The notes under the pieces: generated by a model | What the model was told of the DNA's origin: nothing | The model's database searches: none | What the model saw: only the letters and a program-made list of their open reading frames with translations | DNA from: Methylocystis parvus OBBP | GTDB taxonomy: Bacteria > Pseudomonadota > Alphaproteobacteria > Rhizobiales > Beijerinckiaceae | DNA length: 64,000 nucleotides | Direction: 5' to 3' | NCBI RefSeq assembly: GCF_027571405.1 | Contig: NZ_CP092968.1 | Location: 3,246,001-3,310,000, forward strand | Shown: piece after piece, positions 51,566 to 64,000 of the stretch | Position numbering within the stretch: position 1 is the stretch's first letter | Layout: each line of letters opens with the position of its first letter | Translations under genes and position numbers: made by a program

Positions 51566-51642
51566 GGTCCCGTAGCTCAGCAGGATAGAGCAGCGGTTTC
51601 CTAAACCGAAGGTCACAGGTTCGAATCCTGTCGGGACCGCCA
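51566..51642 (+). tRNA. tRNA-Arg (anticodon CCT)
   Basis: A 77-nt tRNA. Acceptor arms GGTCCCG (51566-51572) and CGGGACC (51632-51638) pair fully; discriminator G and encoded CCA (51640-51642). D-arm TAGCTCAG...GAGC, anticodon loop TTCCTAA giving CCT (Arg, AGG), T-arm with GGTTCGAATCC. The 3' CCA is genome-encoded. A tandem repeat and an H-NS-like gene follow immediately. Confidence 0.96.
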
Positions 51643-51650
51643 CAAATCAG

Positions 51651-51695
51651 TGATTTACTTGCCCTTGATTTACTTGTCCTTGATTTACTCGGCCT
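51651..51695 (+). repeat. Three tandem 15-bp repeats just after tRNA-Arg
   Basis: TGATTTACTTGCCCT (51651-51665), TGATTTACTTGTCCT (51666-51680) and TGATTTACTCGGCCT (51681-51695). The first two differ at one base. They begin 8 nt after the tRNA CCA and could affect tRNA processing or be a replication-slippage product. Confidence 0.85.
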
Positions 51696-51778
51696 GTTGC
51701 GGGCGCCTGTCCGCTGTTGGATTTTGAACGGCGCTGGGCTAGGAACAGGTCTTTCGGAAACTCCGTGGAGACGATCGG

Positions 51779-52144
51779 ATGAACGACGAGTTCGCCAGCT
51801 TGTCGGACCTTGAATTGTTGTCGCTGATCCGTCGGGCGCAGGAGGAATCCGAGCGGCGCAAGGAAGCGAATAAGCGGCGCCTCCGGACCAGGATCGAAGA
51901 CGAGCTGAAGAAGGCTGGCGTGAGCCTCAGCGAAGTCTTCCCCGAGATCGGCGCCGATCAATTGGACGACGCGGCCAGCCTCGCTCAGAAGCCGCGCATG
52001 GCGAAATTCAAGAATCATGCGACGGGCGACGCCTGGTCCGGGCGGGGCCCGCATCCGCCGAACTGGGTAAAGGCGATCATGGCGGAACGGGGTTGGACGC
52101 TCGACGAGTTCAAAGCCGCCGAGGAGTTCCAGGCTCAGAACTAG
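51779..52144 (+). CDS. H-NS family nucleoid protein
   Basis: A 121-residue H-NS-like protein. A helical N-terminal oligomerisation region (SDLELLSLIRRAQEESERRKEANKRRLRTRIEDEL) precedes a linker and the DNA-binding motif ATGDAWSGRGPHPPNWVKAIM, matching the H-NS pattern (ATG-x-x-WSGRG-x-x-P-x-W). Such proteins often silence acquired AT-richer DNA. GGAG is 9 nt before the ATG. Its 3' end overlaps the convergent cytochrome b gene by 4 nt. Its location at the edge of the electron-transfer cluster is suggestive of regulation. Confidence 0.82.
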   Translation: MNDEFASLSDLELLSLIRRAQEESERRKEANKRRLRTRIEDELKKAGVSLSEVFPEIGADQLDDAASLAQKPRMAKFKNHATGDAWSGRGPHPPNWVKAIMAERGWTLDEFKAAEEFQAQN

Positions 52145-52683
52145 AATCTGTGCACCGCCCATATATGGACGAGCGCGGAAACGATCAAAACGACGCAGAG
52201 CGGCGCGTGCAGGAGCCGCCATGCCGCGAAGACGCGCTCGAGGGCCGTCATCTCGGAATGATAGGCGAAGCGATAGAGATAACGTCCCACCACGCCGCTC
52301 GCGACGACGGCGCCCATCGACAGCAATGCGACATTGCTGTTGAAGGCGCCGAGACGGAAATTGCAATGGAACAGGATAAGCGCCGGGCCCGCCACGCCGC
52401 TTATGACGTGAAGCCTGAACCATGACGGAAGCGCGCGCGCTGATTTGGCGCCCGTCGCGAGCCGCTTGCGAATATAGTAGGCGAGTGAAAGCGCCATCAT
52501 GGAGGCGCCGGCGATTCCGAGCCAATAACCCAGGCCCGCTTTCGGCGTCACCGGCTCGTCATAGCTAGCAAGCCATCCCGCGAGGAGCACGGCCGTCAGG
52601 CAGAATGCGATGAGCGCCGGAGCCCATTCGATAAGCGGCGTCACCACGCGCCGCACATTGGCGGCGTTGGAAGCAAGCGGCAT
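52141..52683 (-). CDS. b-type cytochrome-like membrane protein
   Basis: A 180-residue integral membrane protein with five predicted helices. Two pairs of His with 14-residue spacing on separate helices (His92/His106 and His159/His173) are the arrangement expected to ligate two b haems between helices, as in the cytochrome b561 / ferric-reductase-like four-helix families. It could pass electrons between the quinone pool and periplasmic cytochromes. Convergent with H-NS and about 140 nt divergent from the 9-haem cytochrome gene. Function inferred, not shown. Confidence 0.65.
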   Translation of the reverse strand: MPLASNAANVRRVVTPLIEWAPALIAFCLTAVLLAGWLASYDEPVTPKAGLGYWLGIAGASMMALSLAYYIRKRLATGAKSARALPSWFRLHVISGVAGPALILFHCNFRLGAFNSNVALLSMGAVVASGVVGRYLYRFAYHSEMTALERVFAAWRLLHAPLCVVLIVSALVHIWAVHRF

Positions 52684-52823
52684 AAGCGGCGTCCCTCCCT
52701 GGCGCAGGCGCTGTGGAGATCACACGGGCAAATCGCCTGAAATGAGGCAAAAGTCTTTTATAAACAAAGATCACGCAATCTTCGCAATTCGGCTCCAATC
52801 GCGCCGTGTGCCCTGCTTAAGGC

Positions 52824-53759
52824 ATGGCTCTTATGTCGGGAGCCGCGTCACGCCCTTGCATCTATGTTGCGCTTCGCCGCCTGGTCTTGCTGCTTGCGGC
52901 CGGCTTGTGCCTCTGCGCCTCCGCCACGCGCCTCGATGCGCAGACGACAACGCCCGGGGGCTATTTTCTGCCGAGCTTCGGACAGCCGCTCAAGAGTTCC
53001 TTCGATCACGCCAGGACGCAATTTCCGCTGACGGGCGCGCATGCGCAGGCATCCTGCGAGGCTTGTCACTTCAACGGCCAGTTCAAGAATACGCTCTACG
53101 CTTGTCCGGCTTGCCACAATGGCGACAGGACAATCGGCAAATCGCCGAACCATCCGCCGACTTCGCTGAAATGTGCGGGCTGTCACGAGACGACGCTTTT
53201 CTCCGACATCAAGGTGATCGACCATTTGCAGGCGTCGACCAAATGCGTCGCCTGTCATGACGGCCGCATCGCGCGCGGCAAGTCCGCGACGCATATTCCG
53301 ACGGCGGCGCCCTGCGCGGATTGTCACCATACGACATTGAGCTTCACCGTCGGCGTCACGGCGAATGCCGGCAGCGTGTCGAAGACGCCCCTGCCGATGA
53401 CTTTCGTACGGCGCGGTCTCGCCTCCGATTCGCCCGCGGGATCCGGCCGCTTCGATCACCAAAGCGCGGTCGGCCCCTGCGCGACCTGCCACAATGGAGT
53501 CAATGCGACGGGCAAGCCGCCGCGTCACGTCATGACGCAGGCGCCTTGCGATTCCTGCCATAGAGGCGCGACGACATTTTCGGGCGCGCGCTTCGATCAT
53601 ATGGCCGCAAAAGGCCCCTGCCTCTCCTGCCACAATGGACGCGACGCGCAGGGCAAGCCGCCGACGCATGTCGTCACCTCGGAATCCTGCGACGCTTGTC
53701 ACAAGAGCTTCCTCAGTTTCGACGCGGGCCAGCCCACCCTTCGCCGTCCCGGCCGCTGA
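52824..53759 (+). CDS. Nine-haem c-type cytochrome, exported
   Basis: A 311-residue periplasmic protein with nine CxxCH haem-binding motifs: CEACH, CPACH, CAGCH, CVACH, CADCH, CATCH, CDSCH, CLSCH and CDACH. A signal segment (YVALRRLVLLLAAGLCLCA) precedes them. Extra His residues in FDH, GAH and THI contexts are likely sixth ligands. The FDHARTQFPLTGAHAQASCEACH block has the same FDH-FPL-H-CxxCH grammar as the 21-haem protein downstream, so the two belong to one family. It lies directly before the large outer-membrane protein gene. Confidence 0.9.
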   Translation: MALMSGAASRPCIYVALRRLVLLLAAGLCLCASATRLDAQTTTPGGYFLPSFGQPLKSSFDHARTQFPLTGAHAQASCEACHFNGQFKNTLYACPACHNGDRTIGKSPNHPPTSLKCAGCHETTLFSDIKVIDHLQASTKCVACHDGRIARGKSATHIPTAAPCADCHHTTLSFTVGVTANAGSVSKTPLPMTFVRRGLASDSPAGSGRFDHQSAVGPCATCHNGVNATGKPPRHVMTQAPCDSCHRGATTFSGARFDHMAAKGPCLSCHNGRDAQGKPPTHVVTSESCDACHKSFLSFDAGQPTLRRPGR

Positions 53760-53911
53760 TCGCGCCGGCGCCCATGCGCCGCCGCAGAGCCTGAACGAAG
53801 TCCGGGCGCCGTTTTTCCAAGAAAAAACCGAGACTTGGCGACAGGTTTCCGCGCCTCTGTCCTTAAAGCTTTGCCACACAAGACGCATCGGTTTTTCGCG
53901 AAGGAGAGCGG

Positions 53912-56617
53912 ATGCGTCGCGTGGGTCGCAGTTTGCGTTGTGTTTCGTTGCTTGTCGTTGCTTCGATCCTTTCATGCCGCGCGGTCGCCGAGCCGTCGAC
54001 GGAAGGCGCGCTGGAGAAAGCGCGCGAATTCATTCGCGCCAAACACTACGCTCAGGCCGTTTCCCTGCTCGAGCAATCATTGGCCGGCGGATCCTCCATC
54101 CCCCCAGCGGAGATTCTCGAACTTTTCGGCGAGGCGCTCGCAAAAGCCGGCCGTTATCAGCAGGCGCGCCTCGCCATGCAGGATTATATGCGCTTCTACC
54201 CAAAGGGCGACGGCGCGGCGCGCGTCAAAATGCGTCTGGGCGCGTTGCCGCCCGAAACGGCGCCGCCGCCCATGCTGGCGACGAAAAGCGCATCGAATCC
54301 AGGCGACACGACGAATCCCGATGATGTCGCCTGGTCGATGAACGGCAGTCTGAGCAGCTATTTTATTCGGGACGACAGTTACAATGCGGTGAAGGACATT
54401 TCGATCGCGCCGAACCCATCCGCCGATCCGGATGCGCATCGCCTGCATCAGAACACGTTTCTGACGACCTTCGATCAGCTCATTTTCATCAAGCATCCTT
54501 ACGCCAAAACGAAGATCAAGATTTCCGGCATGGACGAGCATCGCATGCGGCCGGGAGAAGTCGTCTCCGATCAATATGGGCTGTCGCAAGCCTATGTCGA
54601 AACGGTCTTCGATGCGCTCGACCTTTCGGTGCGGATCGGGCGGCAGACCCGCAATGCGGGCGGCGTGCTCGGTCGTTTCGACGGCGCCCTCGTCAGCTGG
54701 CGAATGAGCCAGATGCTGCGCCTCAACGCGGTCGCGGGTTCCGCCAATATCAGCCGTTTCGATGCGCCGCTCAAAGACGGCCGCTTTTTCGCGGGCGGAA
54801 GCGTCGATCTTCGATTGACGCCCAATCTCGACGTCAGCCTTTTCGCCATTCAGCAAAATATGCGAACGCTTCTCGACCGTCGCGCGGTCGGCGGGGAATT
54901 CCGCTATTTCAACAAAAACCTGTCCGTGCTGGGCATGGTCGATTACGACATCCATTTCAACCGGTTCAATGCGGGCACGATTTCTTCTTCCTATACGTTC
55001 GAGGACGGCTCCGTCGTCGCAGGCTCTTTCGATCGCCGCCGCGTTCCCTATCTCGCGAGTTTCAACGCTCTTCAGGGACAGCCCTTCCTGACGCTCTACG
55101 ACATGCTGAAATTCAGATCGCAGGACGAGGTGCGCCGCTTCGCCATCGACAGAACGCCTTATTTCCAATCGGCGATGATGAGCTATACGCGTCCGTTGAC
55201 CGACAAGCTTTCGATCAATTTCGATGCGACGACCACCTATGTGAGCGGCACATTGCCGTCTGGCGGCGTGGACGGAAGCAAGCCGCTCGGGCGCGAATAT
55301 TATGTGTCGGGCCAGCTCATCGCGAACGACATCTTCGCGCCTGGCGATCTCTATACGGGCGCGCTGCGCTTCGCGCGCCTCGCCGATTCATATGTCTACT
55401 TCATCGATCTCGACGCGCGCTTTCCTCTTACCGAGCAGTTTCGTGTGAGCCCGCGATTGCGGCTCGGCTATCGCGAGGACCGCAACGCGCCTCTGCAAGA
55501 AACCACGATCCTGCCGTCGCTGCTTCTCGACTATTTCGTCACGAGGAATCTCGCGATCGAAGCCGAGCTCGCCACAAAATGGATCGATACGGCGGCGGGA
55601 AATTTCCGCGGACAGACGCGCGATCTTTTCTTCACTTTGGGCGTGCGCTCCGATTTCGGCAGCGACGGGATCGCGCATTGCGTTGGGCGGCTGACGCCCT
55701 GTCTCGCTTCGATGTTCGGCGCCACGCATGCCGAAGGCAAAGCGGCGGGCGAGCGGCCCGCCGCCGCCGCGCCCGCGCTTTCCTCCGCCTATCTGTTCGA
55801 AGTCGGCGCGCGCTACTGGTTGGGCGGCGCAAGAACCGCTTACGATTATTTTGCGAGCGACACGCCGACATTGAAAGTCTCTTCTCTCTCTTATGATCGT
55901 CTCGTTGCGCAGTCGGGGGAGCTTTTCTTTCGCGGCGACGCGCGTGAAGGCTTGTTGCGAAACGTGTTCCTGAAGGGGAATATCGACGCGGGCGTTCTTC
56001 AATCCGGCCGCTTGCTCGATCACGATTATCCGATCGGCGATTTGGGATCATTGACGCGAAGCGCCGCATCCGGCCGCACCGTCTCCGCAACGATCGATCT
56101 TGGATATAACATCTATACGGGCGAGCGGATGAGGGTCGGCGCCTTTGTCGGCTGGCAATCCTGGTTCGATGCGATCGACGCCAAGGGCTGCGAACAAATC
56201 GGCCTCGGCGCCGTCTGCTTTCCGCCCATTTCGAACACGTTCCGGATGGCGAGTGAACGCGATCACTTCAAATCCTTTCGCGTCGGCGCGGCTTTGGACG
56301 TGGCTTTGACCGACAAGCTCTCATGGAGCGGCGAATTCGCCTTGGCCTCGACCTATCTGCGCGCGACCGATACGCATTATTTCACCTTCGGCGCGGACCC
56401 GGCAAAGGGCCGCGGCGGCGGTTTCGAAGCCGAAACGGCGATGAAATACGCCTTTACGGATCGGATGTCTTTGGGCGTCGGACTGAAGTGGCGTCATCTC
56501 AGCGCGGATGCGCTGGACATGTATGGACAGCTCTTGAAATATGAGGTGAACCGCATCGGGCTTTTCGCGCAGGCCAGCTATCGTTTCGGCTGGGGCGATC
56601 TTTTGAAGCGGGATTGA
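53912..56617 (+). CDS. Large outer-membrane protein: TPR-like N-terminus and beta-barrel
   Basis: A 901-residue exported protein. After a signal peptide (SLRCVSLLVVASILSCRAVAE), residues ~28-105 form TPR-like helices (ALEKAREFIRAKHYAQAVSLLEQSL, LFGEALAKAGRYQQARLAMQDY). From ~140 onwards alternating hydrophobic/polar beta-strands with aromatic girdles indicate an outer-membrane barrel of many strands, ending near QASYRFGWGDLLKRD. TPR-barrel proteins include polysaccharide exporters (PgaA, BcsC type); here the neighbours are multihaem cytochromes, which instead suggests a sheath for an electron conduit. No haem motif is present in it. Confidence 0.75.
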   Translation: MRRVGRSLRCVSLLVVASILSCRAVAEPSTEGALEKAREFIRAKHYAQAVSLLEQSLAGGSSIPPAEILELFGEALAKAGRYQQARLAMQDYMRFYPKGDGAARVKMRLGALPPETAPPPMLATKSASNPGDTTNPDDVAWSMNGSLSSYFIRDDSYNAVKDISIAPNPSADPDAHRLHQNTFLTTFDQLIFIKHPYAKTKIKISGMDEHRMRPGEVVSDQYGLSQAYVETVFDALDLSVRIGRQTRNAGGVLGRFDGALVSWRMSQMLRLNAVAGSANISRFDAPLKDGRFFAGGSVDLRLTPNLDVSLFAIQQNMRTLLDRRAVGGEFRYFNKNLSVLGMVDYDIHFNRFNAGTISSSYTFEDGSVVAGSFDRRRVPYLASFNALQGQPFLTLYDMLKFRSQDEVRRFAIDRTPYFQSAMMSYTRPLTDKLSINFDATTTYVSGTLPSGGVDGSKPLGREYYVSGQLIANDIFAPGDLYTGALRFARLADSYVYFIDLDARFPLTEQFRVSPRLRLGYREDRNAPLQETTILPSLLLDYFVTRNLAIEAELATKWIDTAAGNFRGQTRDLFFTLGVRSDFGSDGIAHCVGRLTPCLASMFGATHAEGKAAGERPAAAAPALSSAYLFEVGARYWLGGARTAYDYFASDTPTLKVSSLSYDRLVAQSGELFFRGDAREGLLRNVFLKGNIDAGVLQSGRLLDHDYPIGDLGSLTRSAASGRTVSATIDLGYNIYTGERMRVGAFVGWQSWFDAIDAKGCEQIGLGAVCFPPISNTFRMASERDHFKSFRVGAALDVALTDKLSWSGEFALASTYLRATDTHYFTFGADPAKGRGGGFEAETAMKYAFTDRMSLGVGLKWRHLSADALDMYGQLLKYEVNRIGLFAQASYRFGWGDLLKRD

Positions 56618-56667
56618 GGATCGCCTCTCCTCGCGCAAGGGCGATCGCCGCGTTGCTCATGCGTGCG

Positions 56668-58026
56668 TCAATTCGTGAATTGCTTGCGCGTCTTTTCATC
56701 GGCCGCAAGTTCGATCGCGGTCTCGCGCTTCTTGTTGCGCAATTTCGGATCGGCCCCTTTCGAGAGGAGCGCGCCGACAATTTCCGCGTGACCATTCCGC
56801 GCCGCGGCCATCAAGGCGCTCATGCCCTGTTCATCCCGGCGGTCGGGATCTGCGCCGCGTCGGAGAAGCGTCGCCACAACGCGCGCAAATCCATGATGCG
56901 CGGCGAGCATTAAGGGCGTCTTGCCGGCGCCGGTCCGCCGGTCGATATTCGCGCCTGAGCCTATGAGCAAAAGGGCGGTCTCTTCATGGCCCTGCTCAAG
57001 CGCCGCCAGAAGCGGCGCGACGCCGTCGCGATCGGCGGTCTCCAATGACGCGCCTTTCGTATGCAGCGCCGCCACAACCTCGCCGGCGCCGCGCGCGGCG
57101 GCGATCCACAGCGCCGACCGTCCGTTTTTGTCGGCGGCGTCGATCGCGTCGCCTTGCGCCAATCGCGCGGTCGCTTCCGGAGAACAGTTTGCGGCCGCCC
57201 GCATCAGCGGGGTCTCGCCATCCTTGCGCGGCGCCGGCCGGGCGTCTTTCTCCAGCAAGCGCGCGAGCGAGACTTCGTCGCAACTTGCCGTAGCGGCGAA
57301 AATGGCGGCGTCGAGCGACGTCTTTGCGATCTTCCCGGTGGCGATCAGCAGCGACGCGACATCCGGCCGCCGGTGAAGAACTGCATATTGCAGCGCGGAG
57401 ACGCCTTGACGATCTCGCGCATTTGAATCGGCGCCGCGTTCGAGGAGAATCCGCACAGATTCGACGCGGCCCTCTCGGGCGGCGGCCATCAGCGGCGTGA
57501 CGCCATTCGCGTCGGGCGCTTCGATAGAAGCTCCCGCGCGCAACAGAGCCACGAGCGCCGGGAGGTCGCCCCTGGCGGCCGCGTCGAAAACGCCGGCGGA
57601 GCCGTTTCGGATCGTCGCTTGCGGCGACAGCGCGAGCGGCGTCAATTGGAGCGTCCGCTTTGGAATTGACGGAGGCGGTTGCGGCGGGCGCTCGGTGACT
57701 TTGACGAGCAGCGCCGCCGCGCGTCTTTCCTTCGCCGAAGCCTTTCGCAGCCATTCGCGCGCAGCGTCCCCGTCGAATGGCGCTCCTCGTCCCTCGATCA
57801 GCATTTTCGCAAGCTCATATTGCGCGGCTGGAAGCCCTTTTTGCGCTGCTTCCCGCATGAAGCGAAAGGCGAGCGCGGGGTCCTGCTCCTTGCTTGCGGC
57901 GGAGCGATGGAAATTCGCCCGTTTCAGCAGCGCCGCCGCATCCGCGCCTGGGGACGAAGCGGGCTTCGCGGCGGCTTGGGCTCCGGCGCCGACGATGAGC
58001 GCAAGCGCGAAAGGCGCAAGTCTCAC
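56668..58026 (-). CDS. Exported ankyrin-repeat protein with Sel1-like segment
   Basis: A 452-residue periplasmic protein. GTG 58026 starts a signal peptide (LAPFALALIVGAGAQAAAKPA). Residues ~40-110 hold a Sel1-like helical repeat (ALAFRFMREAAQKGLPAAQYELAKMLIEG). Then about nine ankyrin repeats follow (for example DANGVTPLMAAAREGRVESVRILLERGADSN). The GTG comes one nucleotide after the stop of the FAD oxidoreductase gene, so expression is coupled. It is probably a scaffold for partner proteins of the cluster. Confidence 0.82.
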   Translation of the reverse strand: MRLAPFALALIVGAGAQAAAKPASSPGADAAALLKRANFHRSAASKEQDPALAFRFMREAAQKGLPAAQYELAKMLIEGRGAPFDGDAAREWLRKASAKERRAAALLVKVTERPPQPPPSIPKRTLQLTPLALSPQATIRNGSAGVFDAAARGDLPALVALLRAGASIEAPDANGVTPLMAAAREGRVESVRILLERGADSNARDRQGVSALQYAVLHRRPDVASLLIATGKIAKTSLDAAIFAATASCDEVSLARLLEKDARPAPRKDGETPLMRAAANCSPEATARLAQGDAIDAADKNGRSALWIAAARGAGEVVAALHTKGASLETADRDGVAPLLAALEQGHEETALLLIGSGANIDRRTGAGKTPLMLAAHHGFARVVATLLRRGADPDRRDEQGMSALMAAARNGHAEIVGALLSKGADPKLRNKKRETAIELAADEKTRKQFTN

Positions 58027-58027
58027 G

Positions 58028-59317
58028 TCACGGAACCCCGTATTTCGTCTCGATCTCGACGCCAATGTCGCGCAGGAACGCCGTCGGCATTTGACCGCCC
58101 GCGCAAATGATCACGACGTCGTTGGCGACGCTGGCGGTAACGCCGCCGACTCGCAGCGTCACCGATTGCGACTCTATTTTCTCGACGCTCGACAGCAGCA
58201 GGGTTCTGCAGGACGAGGCTGTGAGTCTTTTCCTGTTGGCGGGCTTGGCGCGATTGAAGGCGTCGCCGCGATAGGAGAGCGTCACTTGCGCGCCGGGCTC
58301 GGCGGCGAGGGCGCAGGCCGCTTCGAGCGCGCTGTCGCCGCCGCCGATGACGAGCGCGCGGCGGCCTCGATATTGCTGAGAATCAACCAGTCGATAGATG
58401 ACTTTCGAAAGCTCTTCGCCCGGAGCGCCAAGCTTGCGCGGCGTGCCCTGTCGCCCGAGCGCCAGCAAGACGGCGCGCGCGCGATAGGCGTCCTTTTGCG
58501 TGCGCACCTCGAAAGCGTCTCCCGATTTTGAGACCTGCGCGACGCGTTCGCCTTCCTTGATTGGAAGGCGGACCTTGGAAGCGGCGGCTTCGAAGATGGA
58601 GATCAATTCCTCCTTGCTGAGTTCGTGATAATTGTACGATCCGATCAAGGGCAACGTGAAGGGCGCCGTCATCACAAGCTTGCCGCGCGGATAATGCGCG
58701 ACGGCGCCGCCCAATTTCTCCTGTTCGAGCGTGACGAAGCGCAGAGCCTTTTCCTTAGCGGCGAGGCTGGCGGCAAGTCCGGCGGGTCCGCAGCCGACAA
58801 TGACGAGATCGAGCGCCGCGTCGTCGCCGGGCGTCGCATCGCCGCAGATCGACTCGATCGCCTGTCGTCCCTGCTCGACGGCGTTTCGCACGAGCCCCAT
58901 TCCGCCAAGTTCTCCGGCGATGTAGACGCCCGGCACATTGGTGCGGAAGGCGGGATCGACGGACGGAAGTTCAACGCCGCGCGTCTGCGTCCCGAAGACG
59001 AGCGTGATCGCATTTGCGGGACAGGCGGTCTTGCATGCGCCGTGGCCGATGCAATTGGCGGGCTCGACCAGTTCGGCCTTCCCGTCGATCACGCCGAGAA
59101 TGTCGCCTTCGGGACAGGCCCGCACGCATGTCGCGCAGCCCATGCAAAGGGCCGGATCGATTTTTGGATGAAGAGTCGGCGGCTCGACAAGTCCGGCCTC
59201 CCGCGCCTCCGCGCGTTTGGCTTCGCTTTCCGTCTCCACTCTTTGGCGCTTTGCGACATACATCGTCCAGGCAAACGCCAGAGGGACGCCATAAGCGACC
59301 AGAGCGGCTGACGGCAT
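58028..59317 (-). CDS. Membrane-anchored FAD/NAD(P) oxidoreductase with two ferredoxin-type Fe-S clusters
   Basis: A 429-residue protein. An N-terminal helix (ALVAYGVPLAFAWTMYVA) anchors it. Two ferredoxin-like motifs follow: Cys58-x2-Cys61-x2-Cys64-x3-Cys68 (CMGCATCVRACP) and Cys89-x2-His92-x2-Cys95-x3-Cys99 (CIGHGACKTACP), where His replaces the second Cys. The rest is a thioredoxin-reductase-like fold with FAD-binding VGCGPAGLAAS and NAD(P)-binding IGGGDSALEAA, but no CxxC redox-active disulfide typical of thioredoxin reductase. It likely moves electrons between NAD(P)H and Fe-S carriers. Coupled to the ankyrin gene. Confidence 0.82.
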   Translation of the reverse strand: MPSAALVAYGVPLAFAWTMYVAKRQRVETESEAKRAEAREAGLVEPPTLHPKIDPALCMGCATCVRACPEGDILGVIDGKAELVEPANCIGHGACKTACPANAITLVFGTQTRGVELPSVDPAFRTNVPGVYIAGELGGMGLVRNAVEQGRQAIESICGDATPGDDAALDLVIVGCGPAGLAASLAAKEKALRFVTLEQEKLGGAVAHYPRGKLVMTAPFTLPLIGSYNYHELSKEELISIFEAAASKVRLPIKEGERVAQVSKSGDAFEVRTQKDAYRARAVLLALGRQGTPRKLGAPGEELSKVIYRLVDSQQYRGRRALVIGGGDSALEAACALAAEPGAQVTLSYRGDAFNRAKPANRKRLTASSCRTLLLSSVEKIESQSVTLRVGGVTASVANDVVIICAGGQMPTAFLRDIGVEIETKYGVP

Positions 59318-59370
59318 GAGGCGAGACCCTTTCGTTACGCATAATGGCTTGCGCCCATAAATGCTGAGCT

Positions 59371-59392
59371 TCTTGCCGGCGTCCCGGCAAGA
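59371..59392. promoter_or_regulatory. Stem-loop in the divergent region between the oxidoreductase and 21-haem genes
   Basis: TCTTGCCGG (59371-59379), loop CGTC, CCGGCAAGA (59384-59392). A perfect 9-bp stem in the 204-nt intergenic region between divergent genes; it is a candidate regulator-binding site or RNA structure. No other feature is seen in this stretch. Confidence 0.4.
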
Positions 59393-59521
59393 TTGTGGAG
59401 TCTGCGAGACGATAGTGGGGTCCCTTCGTGATCGCGCTTCAAGTGACGCAACGGCCGCGCAATTGCCGCTTTCGCAAAGAAAAAGGCCCTTAGTCGATTA
59501 TCTGAAGGGGACGAAGGCGCG

Positions 59522-61087
59522 TTGCGAGTTTCGGTATGGATAGCGTTCTTGTGCGGCGCATTGGCGATCTGCATTTCTCGCGCGCATGCCGACAATCTCG
59601 TCGAAAGCCTCGTTATCCCCGGGCCGCTGATAAAGGGTCACGAGAAGCTCGAGCGCGAATGCGTTAAATGTCACGAGCCTTTTTCCCGCGCCTCGCAATC
59701 GAGACTATGCCTCGACTGTCACAAGGAGATCGCCCAGGATCGAACGAACCATGTTCGTTTCCACGGGCGCGACCGATTGGCGAGCGTGCAGGAATGCAAT
59801 CACTGTCATACCGACCATATGGGCCGGGACGCCGACATTCGTTCGCTCGACCGTGAAACGTTCGATCATGCGCTGACGGCCTATCCACTGCTCGGCGCGC
59901 ATCGCTCGGTCGCCTGCGGCGGCTGTCATGCGCCGCAGGCCTTCTTTCGCAAGACGCCGTCGCGATGCCTAGACTGCCATAAGAAGCTCGATCCGCATAA
60001 GGGCCGGTTGCAAGCTTGCGAAGCATGTCACGAGACGTCGAACTGGCGGACGCTCAAAGCCTATGATCACGGCAAGACGAAATTTCCCTTGAAAGACGCC
60101 CATAAGGCCGTCGCCTGCGCCACCTGCCACATCGGCGAGGCTTATAAGGATATTTCGACGTCCTGCGTTTCCTGCCACCGTCTCCAGGACGTGCATAACG
60201 GCCGTTATGGCGAGAAGTGCGAGAGCTGCCATAATGAGAAGAAATGGAAGGATGCGCGGTTCGATCATGAACGAACGCGCTTCCCCCTCCGTGGCGGCCA
60301 TGTCGATACGAAATGCGACGCTTGCCATGTCGGCGCCTTGACGGCGAAACTGGAGACGAGCTGCGTCTCATGCCACAAGGAGCAGGATGCACATCACGGC
60401 GCGCTCGGCGAGCGCTGCGAACGCTGCCACGGCGAGAGCGACTGGCGCAAGATTCATTTCGACCATGGACAGTCCGCTTTCCCGCTGCTCGGCAAACATA
60501 TCGCCGTTCCTTGCGCGGATTGTCACGCGACGCCGGCTTATAAGGAGACGCCCAAAGCCTGCCAGCAATGCCATAAAGACGTTCAGCACAAGGGACGGTT
60601 GGGCGCCGAGCCGCGTTGCGGGACCTGCCACAACGCCGAAAGCTGGCGCGCCGCCTCATATGATCATGCGCGGCTGGCGCATTACCCGCTGACGGGCGGA
60701 CACACGAAGCTGACTTGCGAAGCCTGCCACAAGGAGCCCAATCCCGCGACGCTGAAGCTCCCGACGGCCTGCGAAAGCTGCCACAAGGACAGTCAGCACA
60801 AGGGACGCCTCGGCGCTTCGCCGAAATGCGAAAACTGTCACGATACGTCAGGCTGGAGCCATTGGCGCTTCGATCATGCGCGCCAGACGAAATTCCCGCT
60901 CATCGGGCGCCATGAAGGCGTCGCTTGCGAAAGCTGCCACAAGGCGGTCAATTCCCCGAATCTGAAACTTTCGATGGCCTGCTACGACTGTCATGGCAAG
61001 CAGGACGCGCATAAGGGCGCATTCGGACGGCTGTGCGAGAGATGCCATACGCCGGAAGACTGGCGGAAAGTGAAGACCTCGAATTGA
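59522..61087 (+). CDS. 21-haem c-type cytochrome of seven tri-haem modules
   Basis: A 521-residue exported protein with 21 CxxCH motifs. A signal peptide (VSVWIAFLCGALAICISRAHA) is followed by one N-terminal module (CVKCH, CLDCH, CNHCH) and six closely similar modules of about 65-70 residues, each reading FDH...FPL.G.H....CxxCH...CxxCH....H.G...CxxCH....W. The conserved FDH and G.H histidines are probable sixth ligands. Start is TTG 59522 with AAGG upstream. It is probably a periplasm-spanning or surface electron wire. It is followed directly by ccmF. Confidence 0.92.
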   Translation: MRVSVWIAFLCGALAICISRAHADNLVESLVIPGPLIKGHEKLERECVKCHEPFSRASQSRLCLDCHKEIAQDRTNHVRFHGRDRLASVQECNHCHTDHMGRDADIRSLDRETFDHALTAYPLLGAHRSVACGGCHAPQAFFRKTPSRCLDCHKKLDPHKGRLQACEACHETSNWRTLKAYDHGKTKFPLKDAHKAVACATCHIGEAYKDISTSCVSCHRLQDVHNGRYGEKCESCHNEKKWKDARFDHERTRFPLRGGHVDTKCDACHVGALTAKLETSCVSCHKEQDAHHGALGERCERCHGESDWRKIHFDHGQSAFPLLGKHIAVPCADCHATPAYKETPKACQQCHKDVQHKGRLGAEPRCGTCHNAESWRAASYDHARLAHYPLTGGHTKLTCEACHKEPNPATLKLPTACESCHKDSQHKGRLGASPKCENCHDTSGWSHWRFDHARQTKFPLIGRHEGVACESCHKAVNSPNLKLSMACYDCHGKQDAHKGAFGRLCERCHTPEDWRKVKTSN

Positions 61088-61204
61088 CGAGGCGCAGCTT
61101 CCCTATAGACGCCTGAGATGGGTCACGAGATGAACCCATTGCGGCGCCGCTTCGCGCCGCATTGACATGGCTTGTTCGTCGCTTCGCAACGGATAGGCAA
61201 GCCA

Positions 61205-63187
61205 TTGATAACGAGCCAATTCGGTCACTACGCCCTGCTGCTCGCCTTCACGCTCTCGCTCGTGCAGGGCGCAACGCCGTTCATCTTCGCGCGGCGCGGC
61301 GACGTTGCGCTTCACGTCTTCTGCCGGCGCGTCGCCGTCGCGCATTGCGCCGCCGTCATCGCGGCTTTCGCCGCTCTGAGCTACGCTTTCGCGACGTCGG
61401 ATTTCTCGCTCGCCCTCGTCGCGGAAAATTCGCACACGGCGAAACCGCTTCTGTACAAATTCGCCGGCGTCTGGAGCAATCACGAAGGCTCGATGTTGCT
61501 CTGGACGCTCATCCTCGCGCTTTTCGGCGCATACGCCGCGCGTCGCGGAGACCAAATTCCCGGGCGGCTTCTTTCCTTTGCGCTCGCTATTCAGGCGTCG
61601 ATCAGCGCAGGTTTCCTCGGCTTCATCTTGATGACGTCGAACCCGTTCGCAACTCTGGCGCAGACGCCCGCGGAAGGGGCCGGGCTCAATCCAATCTTGC
61701 AGGATCCCGGCCTCGCTCTGCATCCGCCCTTTCTCTATCTCGGCTATGTCGGCTTCTCCATGGCCTTCTCCTTCGCGCTCGCCGGTCTGATCGACGGCGG
61801 CCCCGGCGCTGCCTGGGCGCGCTGGGTGCGGCCTTTCGCGCTCGCCGCATGGAGCTTTCTGACGATCGGCGTCACGCTCGGCAGTTTCTGGGCCTATTAC
61901 ACGCTGGGCTGGGGCGGATGGTGGTTCTGGGACCCGGTCGAGAACGCCTCGCTCATGCCGTGGCTCACGGGAACGGCCTTCCTGCATTCGGCGATCGTGA
62001 TGGAGCGGCGCAACGCGCTCGCCGCATGGACGATCCTTCTCGGTATTGTCACCTTCTCCTTGAGCCTTGTCGGCACGTTTCTCGTGCGCTCGGGCGTTCT
62101 TTCGAGCGTTCACGCCTTCGCGCAGGACCCGTCGCGCGGCGTCTTCATCCTTGCGCTCATCGCCACGGCGACGGGAGCGGCCTTGGCAATCTGGGCTTGG
62201 CGGGCGCCGAGGCTCGAGAAGAGCGCGCCCTTCGCGCTCGTCAGTCGCGAAAGCAGCCTCGCGTTGAACAATGTCTTGCTCAGCACGGCGGCCTTCACCG
62301 TCTTCCTCGGCACATTCTATCCGCTGGTCGTGGAGATGTTCGGCGCTGGGAAGATTTCGGTCGGGCCGCCTTATTTCGCGCGCACCTTCGCGCCGATCGG
62401 CGCCATCCTCGTCGCGGCGGCGGCTTTCGGGCCCGCGCTCAGCTGGAAGCGGGATACGATGCGCGGCGCTTTTGCGCGGCTGCGTCCCGCCGCTCTCGCA
62501 GGGATGGTTGCGCTCGCCGCGGTCACGATCTTCAGTCGAGACCTCGTTGCAGCTTTGCTCCTTGCCCTCGCGGCGTGGCTTGCGCTCGGCTCGCTCGTGG
62601 TTCTCGCGCGCCGCGTCCGCCTCTTCGAGGCGTCTTTGCTCACCTCTCTTCGTCTCGCGCGCACGACGCCGCAGGCTTTCTACGGATTGGTCGTCGCGCA
62701 TGCGGGCGTCGGCGTCATGCTCGCGGGCATGACCGGCGCGGCCTTCTGGTCGAGCGAGAAAACGGAGCGGCTTTACCCAGGCGATGCGCTCCGTTCAGGG
62801 CAAGTCGAATTGCGCCTCGATTCTGTCGGCGACGTCGAGGGGCCGAACTATCAGGCGGAGCAGGCGCGCTTTACGCTGAAACGGGACGGCGCCTTCGTCG
62901 CGCGTCTCGTCAGCGAGAGGCGCTATTTTCCGATGCGCGATCAGACGACGACGGCGGCCGGCATCCATACGAATCTCGTCGAGAACCTCTATGTCGCGCT
63001 GGGCGAAGCCGGCGATGGCGGCGGATGGGCGGTGCGTTTCTATCGGCATCCTTTCGTTCCGCTGGTCTGGATCGGCGGACTGATCATGGCGCTGGGCGGC
63101 TTCGTTTCGCTCGGCGACAAGAGACTGCGCATCGGCGCGCCGCAACGCGCGCGCGTTTGTCCAGTCGGAGCGGAGCAATGGTCGTGA
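61205..63187 (+). CDS. ccmF: Cytochrome c haem lyase subunit CcmF
   Basis: Inner-membrane component of the system I haem lyase, accepting haem from CcmE and ligating it to apocytochrome c with CcmH and CcmI. The 660-residue polytopic protein has the tryptophan-rich WWD motif region (GWGGWWFWDPVENASLMPWL) and conserved His residues in neighbouring loops (for example NHEGSMLLW). TTG 61205 gives the conserved start ITSQFGHYALLL; a TTG at 61172 is less likely. ccmH overlaps its 3' end by 10 nt. ccmE does not precede it here, unlike the cycHJKL order of most Rhizobiales. Confidence 0.93.
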   Translation: MITSQFGHYALLLAFTLSLVQGATPFIFARRGDVALHVFCRRVAVAHCAAVIAAFAALSYAFATSDFSLALVAENSHTAKPLLYKFAGVWSNHEGSMLLWTLILALFGAYAARRGDQIPGRLLSFALAIQASISAGFLGFILMTSNPFATLAQTPAEGAGLNPILQDPGLALHPPFLYLGYVGFSMAFSFALAGLIDGGPGAAWARWVRPFALAAWSFLTIGVTLGSFWAYYTLGWGGWWFWDPVENASLMPWLTGTAFLHSAIVMERRNALAAWTILLGIVTFSLSLVGTFLVRSGVLSSVHAFAQDPSRGVFILALIATATGAALAIWAWRAPRLEKSAPFALVSRESSLALNNVLLSTAAFTVFLGTFYPLVVEMFGAGKISVGPPYFARTFAPIGAILVAAAAFGPALSWKRDTMRGAFARLRPAALAGMVALAAVTIFSRDLVAALLLALAAWLALGSLVVLARRVRLFEASLLTSLRLARTTPQAFYGLVVAHAGVGVMLAGMTGAAFWSSEKTERLYPGDALRSGQVELRLDSVGDVEGPNYQAEQARFTLKRDGAFVARLVSERRYFPMRDQTTTAAGIHTNLVENLYVALGEAGDGGGWAVRFYRHPFVPLVWIGGLIMALGGFVSLGDKRLRIGAPQRARVCPVGAEQWS

Positions 63188-63639
63188 GGCGCGTCTTTCT
63201 CGCGATGTTTCTTTTCGTTTCGGCGCCAGCCCTGGCGGCGCAGCCAGATGAGTCCCTCGCCGACGCGTCGCTCGAGGCGCGCGCCATGGCATTAGGGCGC
63301 GAATTGAGATGCGTCGTCTGCCAGAATCAGAGCATCGAAGATTCAAATGCGTCTCTCGCCCATGACCTGCGCGTGCTGCTGCGCGAGAGGCTGTCGGGCG
63401 GCGACAGTAATGAGGCGGCGATCGCCTACATATCCGCGCGCTACGGCGATTTCGTGCTGCTGAAACCGCCGCTGAAAGCGATGACCGCGCTGCTATGGGC
63501 GGGACCCGCGCTCTTTCTATTCGGCGCGCTCGCCTTGTTCCTGCGCTTCACCCGGCGCGGCGCGGTCGGGCCAGCGCCTTTGACCGCCGACGAGAAAGCA
63601 AAACTGGCGGCCTTCTTCGATGAGCGAGAACGCGCATGA
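63178..63639 (+). CDS. ccmH: Cytochrome c-type biogenesis protein CcmH (CycL)
   Basis: A 153-residue thiol oxidoreductase that reduces the CxxCH disulfide of apocytochromes and works with CcmF. It has a signal peptide (FLAMFLFVSAPALAAQ), the RCxxC motif in LRCVVCQNQSIEDSNA, and a C-terminal membrane helix (LLWAGPALFLFGALALFLRF). It overlaps ccmF by 10 nt and ccmI by 4 nt (ATGA), a tight operon. Confidence 0.94.
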   Translation: MVVRRVFLAMFLFVSAPALAAQPDESLADASLEARAMALGRELRCVVCQNQSIEDSNASLAHDLRVLLRERLSGGDSNEAAIAYISARYGDFVLLKPPLKAMTALLWAGPALFLFGALALFLRFTRRGAVGPAPLTADEKAKLAAFFDERERA

Positions 63640-64000
63640 TCCTTTGGCTTGTCCTGACCGCGATGACGTCGATCGCGGCCGTCTTTGTCGCCGCGCCCTT
63701 TCTTCGCGATTGGGAGACGCAAGCGCCGCCTCGCGAACGAGACGTCTTTCTGGACCAGCTTCGAGAGATCGAATTGGAGCGTTCGCGCGGAGATATCGAC
63801 GCCTCCAGCGCGGAGGCCGCCGCCAATGAAGTGCGCCGGCGACTTCTGGCTGCGCGCATCAATGACAGTCTCCCGCAGCTTTCCGCGAAAGAGCGCGCAT
63901 TCGCCGCGATCGGCGTCGCGGGGGTCGTCGCGCTCGGTTCCGTCGGTCTCTTCGCGCTCACCAGCGGACAGGCGCCGATGGCGCGCGACGAGCGTGAGAT
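63636..64000 (+). CDS. ccmI: Cytochrome c biogenesis protein CcmI, N-terminal part (runs off window)
   Basis: The first 121 codons are visible. An N-terminal membrane helix (ILWLVLTAMTSIAAVFVAAPFL), the RERDVFLDQLREIELERSRGDIDASSAEAAANEVRRRLL helical segment typical of CcmI, and a second membrane helix (IGVAGVVALGSVGLFAL) are present. CcmI is the apocytochrome chaperone of the haem lyase; its TPR domain should lie beyond base 64000. ATG 63636 overlaps the ccmH stop. Confidence 0.9.
   Translation, partial: MILWLVLTAMTSIAAVFVAAPFLRDWETQAPPRERDVFLDQLREIELERSRGDIDASSAEAAANEVRRRLLAARINDSLPQLSAKERAFAAIGVAGVVALGSVGLFALTSGQAPMARDERE

What the first reader, a model, noticed from the sequence alone, without database searches (positions are those of the whole stretch)
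52141..64000. Candidate undescribed trans-envelope electron-transfer island
Seen: a dihaem b-type membrane cytochrome, a 9-haem cytochrome c, a 901-residue TPR/beta-barrel outer-membrane protein, an ankyrin scaffold, a membrane-anchored FAD/Fe-S oxidoreductase, a 21-haem cytochrome c and ccmFHI occur together over 12 kb. Known: porin-cytochrome conduits (MtrCAB, PioAB) combine a barrel and multihaem cytochromes to move electrons across the outer membrane. Inference: this is an analogous but differently built conduit, linking NAD(P)H or quinone to the cell surface or to an extracellular donor or acceptor. The barrel is not obviously MtrB/PioB-like, and the 7x3 haem protein differs from decahaem MtrA/PioA.
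Basis: partly seen in the sequence, partly recalled or inferred. Interest (0 to 1): 0.9.

Follow-up and report, generated by a model that had tools for sequence, protein, structure and literature searches.

The report
Methanotroph's compact outer-membrane electron conduit (PCC3)
A methane-eating bacterium carries a gene set that probably wires electrons between the cell interior and the outside world; the core belongs to a known but experimentally untested family called PCC3, here in an unusual short form with extra parts.

Summary
The "undescribed conduit" is not undescribed: it is a member of PCC3, the porin-cytochrome cluster named by He et al. 2017. The barrel aligns over 713 columns (E 2e-109) with PCC3-type porins, one from Uliginosibacterium gangwonense, a PCC3 carrier by He's text; homology to MtrB/PioB is not detectable. 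The 21-haem protein, the di-haem b motif and the surface-cytochrome N-terminus match too. Beyond the PCC3 text I read: (1) a membrane-anchored FAD/Fe-S oxidoreductase travels with it in many lineages (4 of 5 porin genomes, 0 of 293 others in the family; 19 of 32 named loci), with an invariant Cys-to-His swap; (2) a second, local CcmFHI; (3) 9 surface haems here, 190 in M. bryophila; (4) a second porin barrel with omptin-protease fold and motifs. Likeliest mechanism: NAD(P)H-linked electron export under oxygen limitation; direction and function are inferred. Verdict: new variant of a known kind.

The parts
52141..52683 (-). Inner-membrane di-haem b-type protein (PCC3 'IMP'), compact 180-aa form lacking the ~110-residue TM4-TM5 loop of most relatives
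   Evidence: Two WX3HX13H and SGxxG; 11 of the 120 homologs listed are 190 aa or shorter, the rest longer; alignment shows the missing loop; a profile of the family finds PCC3 loci in named genomes
52824..53759 (+). 9-haem c-type cytochrome, presumed surface/outer-membrane partner of the porin: 5-haem N-cap, variable linker, 4-haem C-domain
   Evidence: 9 CxxCH; N-cap aligns best at haem 1 in 7 of 9 relatives tested, the 2 misses lack their N-terminus; nine short forms aligned, the window's own included, have exactly 9
53912..56617 (+). Outer-membrane protein: signal, TPR (res 30-111), 22-strand part (138-589), disordered linker, omptin-fold 10-strand barrel (627-893)
55790..56590 (+). Omptin-fold C-terminal barrel with D703-x-D705 and D820-x-H822
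56668..58065 (-). Sel1 + ankyrin-repeat protein with N-terminal hydrophobic segment (probably exported), 38-bp overlap with the next gene
   Evidence: PF12796 1.9e-48, PF08238 7.4e-7; hydrophobic segment 14-32; adjacent to the FAD/Fe-S gene in 8 of 14 context loci
58028..59317 (-). Membrane-anchored FAD/NAD(P)/Fe-S oxidoreductase
59522..61087 (+). 21-haem c-type cytochrome, presumed periplasm-spanning wire (TTG start)
   Evidence: 21 CxxCH; aligns end to end with the 24-haem protein of U. gangwonense, 43% over 509
61172..63187 (+). ccmF-type haem lyase subunit, one of two in the genome
63180..63639 (+). ccmH (start approximate)
   Evidence: PF03918 1.6e-43 in the overlapping ORF
63636..64000 (+). 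ccmI, continues about 700 bases beyond the window

Best explanation
This is an alphaproteobacterial PCC3 porin-cytochrome conduit in compact form. Shown by sequence: homology of porin core, 21-haem cytochrome, surface-cytochrome N-cap and di-haem b protein to PCC3-type clusters, and frequent company of a FAD/Fe-S oxidoreductase. Inferred mechanism: on the cytoplasmic face the membrane-anchored flavoprotein takes two electrons from NAD(P)H, splits them through its Fe-S clusters and hands them singly to the di-haem b protein, which carries them across the inner membrane (a split analogue of NADPH oxidase/ferric reductase). The 21-haem protein spans the periplasm. The 9-haem protein sits in the 22-strand barrel, its constant 5-haem cap as the membrane-crossing piece and its 4-haem end outside, where electrons reach ferric minerals or another acceptor. 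The TPR and ankyrin proteins position the parts; the local CcmFHI attaches haems. In a methanotroph this would be an electron outlet under oxygen limitation. The confidence below is for a PCC3-type conduit in either direction; within it I put export at about 60:40.
For: Porin homology E 2e-109 to six PCC3-type porins from named genomes. 21-haem orthology. Surface-cytochrome N-cap orthology across classes. IMP signature as He 2017 defines it. Synteny: 30 of 32 IMP loci with flank; a gene with five or more CxxCH just upstream of the porin in 47 of 49 porin loci. FAD/Fe-S: in 12 of 14 context loci, the other 2 on contigs that end inside the cluster; in the host's family 4 of 5 porin-core genomes versus 0 of 293 others (the four are one genus, so not independent). 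No conserved redox disulfide in 54 rows. ES-1 PCC3 clusters go down on Fe(II) (PMC8788666, passages), against a dedicated Fe(II)-uptake role there. Methylocystis is linked to methane-dependent ferrihydrite reduction with unidentified cytochromes (PMC10960957, passages).
Against: I know of no functional test of any PCC3; a 2025 paper calls it 'functionally unverified' (PMC12442390, passages). The FAD/Fe-S gene was not found within the locus in 13 of 32 flanked named loci, and Leptothrix discophora L161 and Sideroxydans sp. L164, relatives of the bacteria in which PCC3 was first described, show none, so it is not universal. He 2017 proposed the quinone pool, not NAD(P)H, as partner, and uptake as direction. 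The hydropathy scan found 4 clear helices in the 180-aa IMP, not five. Nine haems is below the 10-35 published for Gallionellaceae surface proteins. That the L130 locus is the one He et al. meant is inferred. Localisation of every part is inferred.
Confidence: 0.8

Rival explanations
1. Same conduit, opposite direction: PCC3 takes electrons from Fe(II), a mineral or a partner cell and delivers them to quinone or, with proton motive force, to NAD(P)+. (Its odds are a share of the 0.8 above.)
For: He 2017 model and presence in some iron oxidisers; one PCC3 inner-membrane gene rises with iron oxidation in Sideroxydans CL21 (PMC12442390, passages).
Against: Both ES-1 PCC3 clusters fall on Fe(II); a methanotroph has another donor; electron flow inward to NAD(P)+ would work against the membrane potential (inference).
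Confidence: 0.3
2. The compact cluster is a decaying remnant of the giant-wire form found in congeners and does little.
For: Surface cytochrome of 9 haems against up to 190 in congeners; IMP loop and the N-terminal porin domain of most relatives absent.
Against: Six short cytochromes other than the window's own are 78-84% identical and two more 53-54%, all with exactly 9 haems; porin 78-86% identical over residues 34-610 in six relatives; reading frames open and all haem and b-haem motifs kept.
Confidence: 0.07
3. Not electron transfer across the outer membrane: a haem/iron store or periplasmic redox buffer with an unrelated outer-membrane porin or exporter.
For: No biochemical proof of conduit function; TPR-plus-barrel layout also occurs in exporters (recalled).
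Against: Porin and multihaem gene adjacent in 47 of 49 loci; the TPR-barrel matches PCC3 porins and no exporter family was hit; 25-31 residues per haem in relatives whose ORF is whole or nearly so, as argued by He 2017 for wires.
Confidence: 0.08

Closest known systems
PCC3 (He et al. 2017, PMC5566968, section 15 read whole)
   Same: Homologous porin core, 21-haem periplasmic cytochrome, surface-cytochrome N-cap, inner-membrane protein with SGxxG and two WX3HX13H
   Different: Surface cytochrome 9 haems; IMP 180 not ~300 aa; porin lacks the N-terminal domain of most relatives and carries an omptin-fold barrel; FAD/Fe-S, ankyrin and CcmFHI genes alongside, none of which section 15 mentions. He does note extra redox proteins in PCC4 and in other IMP clusters
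MtrCAB / MtoAB / PioAB
   Same: Works like: barrel plus multihaem cytochromes crossing the outer membrane. An MtrA/MtrB-type conduit is proposed for the methanotroph Methylobacter (PMC13322032, passages)
   Different: No detectable porin homology (hhalign E 0.16; no PF11854 in the genome); 21-haem instead of decahaem; not a member
PCC4 (He et al. 2017)
   Same: IMP with the same motif signature; extra redox protein in the cluster
   Different: PCC4 has three periplasmic multihaem cytochromes; its porin was not compared here
NADPH oxidase / ferric reductase-type di-haem b proteins (link made by He 2017; MsrQ recalled)
   Same: Two pairs of His spaced by 13 on two helices, here with a NAD(P)H-type flavoprotein in the cluster
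   Different: Flavoprotein is a separate Fe-S protein; no meaningful sequence match of the IMP to solved structures; its fold could not be predicted
Omptin outer-membrane proteases (E. coli OmpT)
   Same: 10-strand fold, D-x-D and D-x-H motifs
   Different: 13-14% identity in the structural alignments, fused to a conduit porin; activity unknown

Membership tests
PCC3 | Porin homologous to PCC3 porins | tested here: met
   hhalign prob 100, E 2e-109, 713 columns, against six porins incl. L130 U. gangwonense DSM 18521, named as PCC3 carrier by He 2017
PCC3 | Periplasmic multihaem cytochrome, about 21 haems | tested here: met
   21 CxxCH; 43% identity over 509 to the 24-haem protein in L130, both ends aligned. 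Localisation inferred
PCC3 | Surface multihaem cytochrome gene beside the porin | tested here: met
   Adjacent upstream; 5-haem N-cap best at haem 1 in L130 and six of eight others. Haem number (9) is under the 'usual' large count, median 34, which He does not make a condition. Surface location not tested
PCC3 | Inner-membrane protein with SGxxG and two WX3HX13H | tested here: met
   length 180 instead of ~300 aa; five helices not confirmed (4 by hydropathy)
PCC3 | Extracellular electron transfer | not testable with these tools
   Called functionally unverified in 2025
MtrAB/PioAB | MtrB/PioB porin (PF11854) | tested here: not met
   the same model passes its cut-off in 7 of 150 genomes of the order
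MtrAB/PioAB | Decahaem MtrA/DmsE cytochrome | tested here: not met
   TIGR03508 at 30.2 and 25.2 bits, cut-off 192.2
PCC4 | Three periplasmic multihaem cytochromes with PCC4 porin | tested here: inconclusive
   Only two multihaem genes in the window; no PCC4 porin was fetched for comparison
PgaA-type TPR/barrel exporter | PgaA barrel family match with synthase genes | tested here: inconclusive
   No such family among Pfam or NCBIfam hits of the 901-aa protein at E 1e-3; synthase genes not sought
Omptin (C-terminal domain only) | 10-strand omptin fold | tested here: met
Omptin (C-terminal domain only) | Catalytic D-x-D and D-x-H | tested here: inconclusive
   Motifs present and conserved; residue-level superposition not available, OmpT numbering recalled
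Thioredoxin/bacillithiol (YpdA) reductase | Redox-active cysteine(s) | tested here: not met
   No conserved CxxC in the flavin domain; Cys176 in 9 of 54; YpdA model 144.9 bits, cut-off 339.9

The most novel reading that the evidence does not exclude
A split NADPH-oxidase-like electron exporter whose outer-membrane end is a double barrel: one barrel is the conduit, the other a built-in omptin-type protease that trims or anchors the surface cytochrome, for instance at the RR found in the otherwise variable linker after haem 5 in 9 of 9 short forms. The exposed haem array is an accordion that evolution stretches from 9 to about 190 haems on a constant 5-haem plug, so methanotrophs of one genus carry outlets of very different reach.
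Probability: 0.15. Interest if true: 0.9.

Novelty: new variant of a known kind. Interest (0 to 1): 0.62.

Why it matters
Methylocystis has been tied to methane oxidation with Fe(III) in oxygen-poor soil and sediment, but the passages I read name no outer-membrane conduit (PMC10960957, PMC12366373); this offers one with a gene list that can be knocked out. It also gives the untested PCC3 family a candidate cytoplasmic electron partner. With the lowest haem count of the 47 surface genes counted and a 180-aa inner-membrane protein, the compact version is a tractable one to reconstitute. A congener's 190-motif protein exceeds the 113 that a 2020 paper calls the highest recorded (PMC7082337, one passage).

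Tried and rejected

Rows left out of counts: of the 12 short cytochromes printed, P0250 and P0255 (5 motifs, shorter proteins) and P0263 (10 motifs, 44% identity) are not among the nine. Only nine surface cytochromes were chosen for and, besides the nine short forms, 25. In one search genes cut by a locus end count as they stand, and for L086 the gene counted is the other cytochrome. The named set was ranked against a betaproteobacterial-type IMP of my choice, so such genomes are over-represented.

Paper searches for print precedent: PCC3/porin-cytochrome/multiheme, Methylocystis with extracellular electron transfer, PCC3 with CcmF, haem-number records, Methylocystis with porin-cytochrome (one review, unrelated by title), Methylocystis with iron, M. 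bryophila with cytochrome, PCC3 with ankyrin / pyridine nucleotide-disulfide / heme lyase (none). Supplementary files (He's gene lists) could not be read.

Full report
What is there. The window is G000:C1:3246001-3310000. The genome is a Methylocystis: the closest named porin relative is from Methylocystis sp. JAN1 (85% over residues 34-610), a same-genus genome (G857) has a contig of exactly the length of the M. bryophila contig (4,540,773), and three pmoA-family genes are present. 'M. bryophila' below rests on that contig length.

Identity of the core. He et al. 2017 (PMC5566968; [quoted passage not shown] The window's 180-aa protein has that signature. An IMP profile run over named genome contigs found 300 relatives, of which the best 80 were kept. 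Among them is Uliginosibacterium gangwonense DSM 18521 (L130), named in He's text as a PCC3 carrier; that this locus is the one meant is inferred. It holds homologs of IMP, porin, FAD/Fe-S protein, CcmF and CcmH and genes with 24 and 23 CxxCH. Of the 80 loci 74 hold a gene with nine or more CxxCH and 64 hold two; 32 have at least 3.5 kb left and 7 kb right of the IMP, and 30 of these 32 hold the porin core and at least two such genes; the two lacking the porin are L126 and L165. The other 48 had too little flank for that count.

Porin. Profile-profile comparison of 55 relatives with six porins (L130, Sideroxydans sp., Leptothrix discophora, Emcibacter sp. and two other MAGs) gives probability 100, E 2e-109 over 713 columns. 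The same profile against five PF11854 (MtrB/PioB) proteins gives probability 0.4, E 0.16, and the host genome has no PF11854 match. AlphaFold2 (mean pLDDT 80.6, pTM 0.52) shows TPR-like helices at 30-111, 22 strands at 138-589, a disordered linker at 589-623 and ten strands at 627-893. In the host's family the porin core is in 5 of 298 genomes and, within the genus, in 4 of 25; the other matches there are to the C-terminal domain.

Surface cytochrome. The gene next to the porin has 9 haems here. A gene with five or more motifs lies just upstream of the porin in 47 of 49 porin loci; counts run from 9 (window) to 117 in a cut gene, median 27. Read further, M. bryophila's is one ORF of 5918 aa with 190 CxxCH, and G889's is 5258 aa with 189 although its start is uncertain. 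A 2020 paper the highest recorded (PMC7082337, one passage); He 2017 gave 85. The window's 5-haem N-terminal part aligns best to the first five haems in 7 of 9 relatives tested, L130 included; the two misses lack their N-terminus. The 9-haem form is stable: six other close homologs at 78-84% and two at 53-54% all have exactly 9 motifs, with a near-identical 5-haem part, a variable linker and a 4-haem end.

FAD/Fe-S partner. A homolog is in 12 of 14 context loci (window included); the other two lie on contigs that end inside the cluster. Among 298 genomes of the host family (same size of draw, same handles as far as listed) 4 have it at E 1e-30 or better, all four genomes with the porin core; the fifth porin genome (G756) has its cluster on a 14-kb contig. 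These four are one genus, so not independent. In named loci with flank it is in 19 of 32; Leptothrix discophora L161 and Sideroxydans sp. L164 show none. In 54 aligned proteins the first Fe-S motif reads C-x2-S/C/A-x2-C-x3-C (S 35, C 17, A 2) and the second C-x2-H-x2-C-x3-C in all 54; no redox disulfide is conserved, while the two nucleotide-binding motifs are. Elsewhere in the host genome the next best match is E 3.5e-6. Section 15 of He 2017 does not mention such a gene, nor do the passages I read of three later PCC3 papers; He does note redox partners in PCC4 and other IMP clusters.

Other companions. An ankyrin protein beside the FAD/Fe-S gene occurs in 8 of 14 context loci, and CcmF or CcmH in 7 of 14; in the named set they are rare (ankyrin 3, CcmF 4, CcmH 3 of 32). 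The host has another ccmF at C1:3460680, so this is a second, local set. In both cytochromes the cysteines outside the N-terminal signal all belong to CxxCH (counts, sequences), so the extra lyase is not for odd haem motifs; high haem load is my guess.

Mechanism. The IMP's His spacing led He et al. to compare it with ferric reductase/NADPH oxidase domains. A NAD(P)H-type flavoprotein that travels with it sharpens that comparison: NAD(P)H to FAD, through two Fe-S clusters to b haems, out to the 21-haem wire and through porin plus surface cytochrome. I favour export, because electrons leaving fit the membrane potential and because Methylocystis is linked to methane-driven ferrihydrite reduction (PMC10960957 and PMC12366373, passages). 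In another methanotroph, Methylobacter, an MtrA/MtrB-type conduit is proposed for current on anodes (PMC13322032, passages). Shown: sequence families, order, co-occurrence. Inferred: localisation, partners, direction, protease activity.

Verdict. A member of PCC3 by each sequence feature tested, in a compact form, with a FAD/Fe-S partner, local CcmFHI and an omptin-fold domain that make it a new variant. Worth a specialist's attention chiefly for the methanotroph setting, the partner flavoprotein, the fused protease-like barrel and the 9-to-190 range of haems.

Noticed in passing
Both exceed the 113 a 2020 paper calls the record.
   Followed up: partly
window 55790-56590: Omptin-fold barrel fused to the conduit porin; similar domains occur without the porin core in other genomes of the order.
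   Followed up: partly
L163, L170, L172, L090: FAD/Fe-S plus ankyrin pair recurs with PCC3 genes outside the host family, including two MAGs labelled Nitrospinaceae (transfer or misbinning).
   Followed up: no
L122, L156: MAG contigs labelled Methanoperedens and Klebsiella carry PCC3-type genes; probably binning errors.
   Followed up: no
window 51566-52144: tRNA-Arg(CCT) followed by an H-NS-like gene whose end overlaps the IMP gene's end; no att-like repeat found.
   Followed up: partly
G238 C5:5682-6140, G899, G921: Weaker IMP-like proteins (E 1e-18 to 1e-16) in genomes without the porin core, perhaps another di-haem b family.
   Followed up: no
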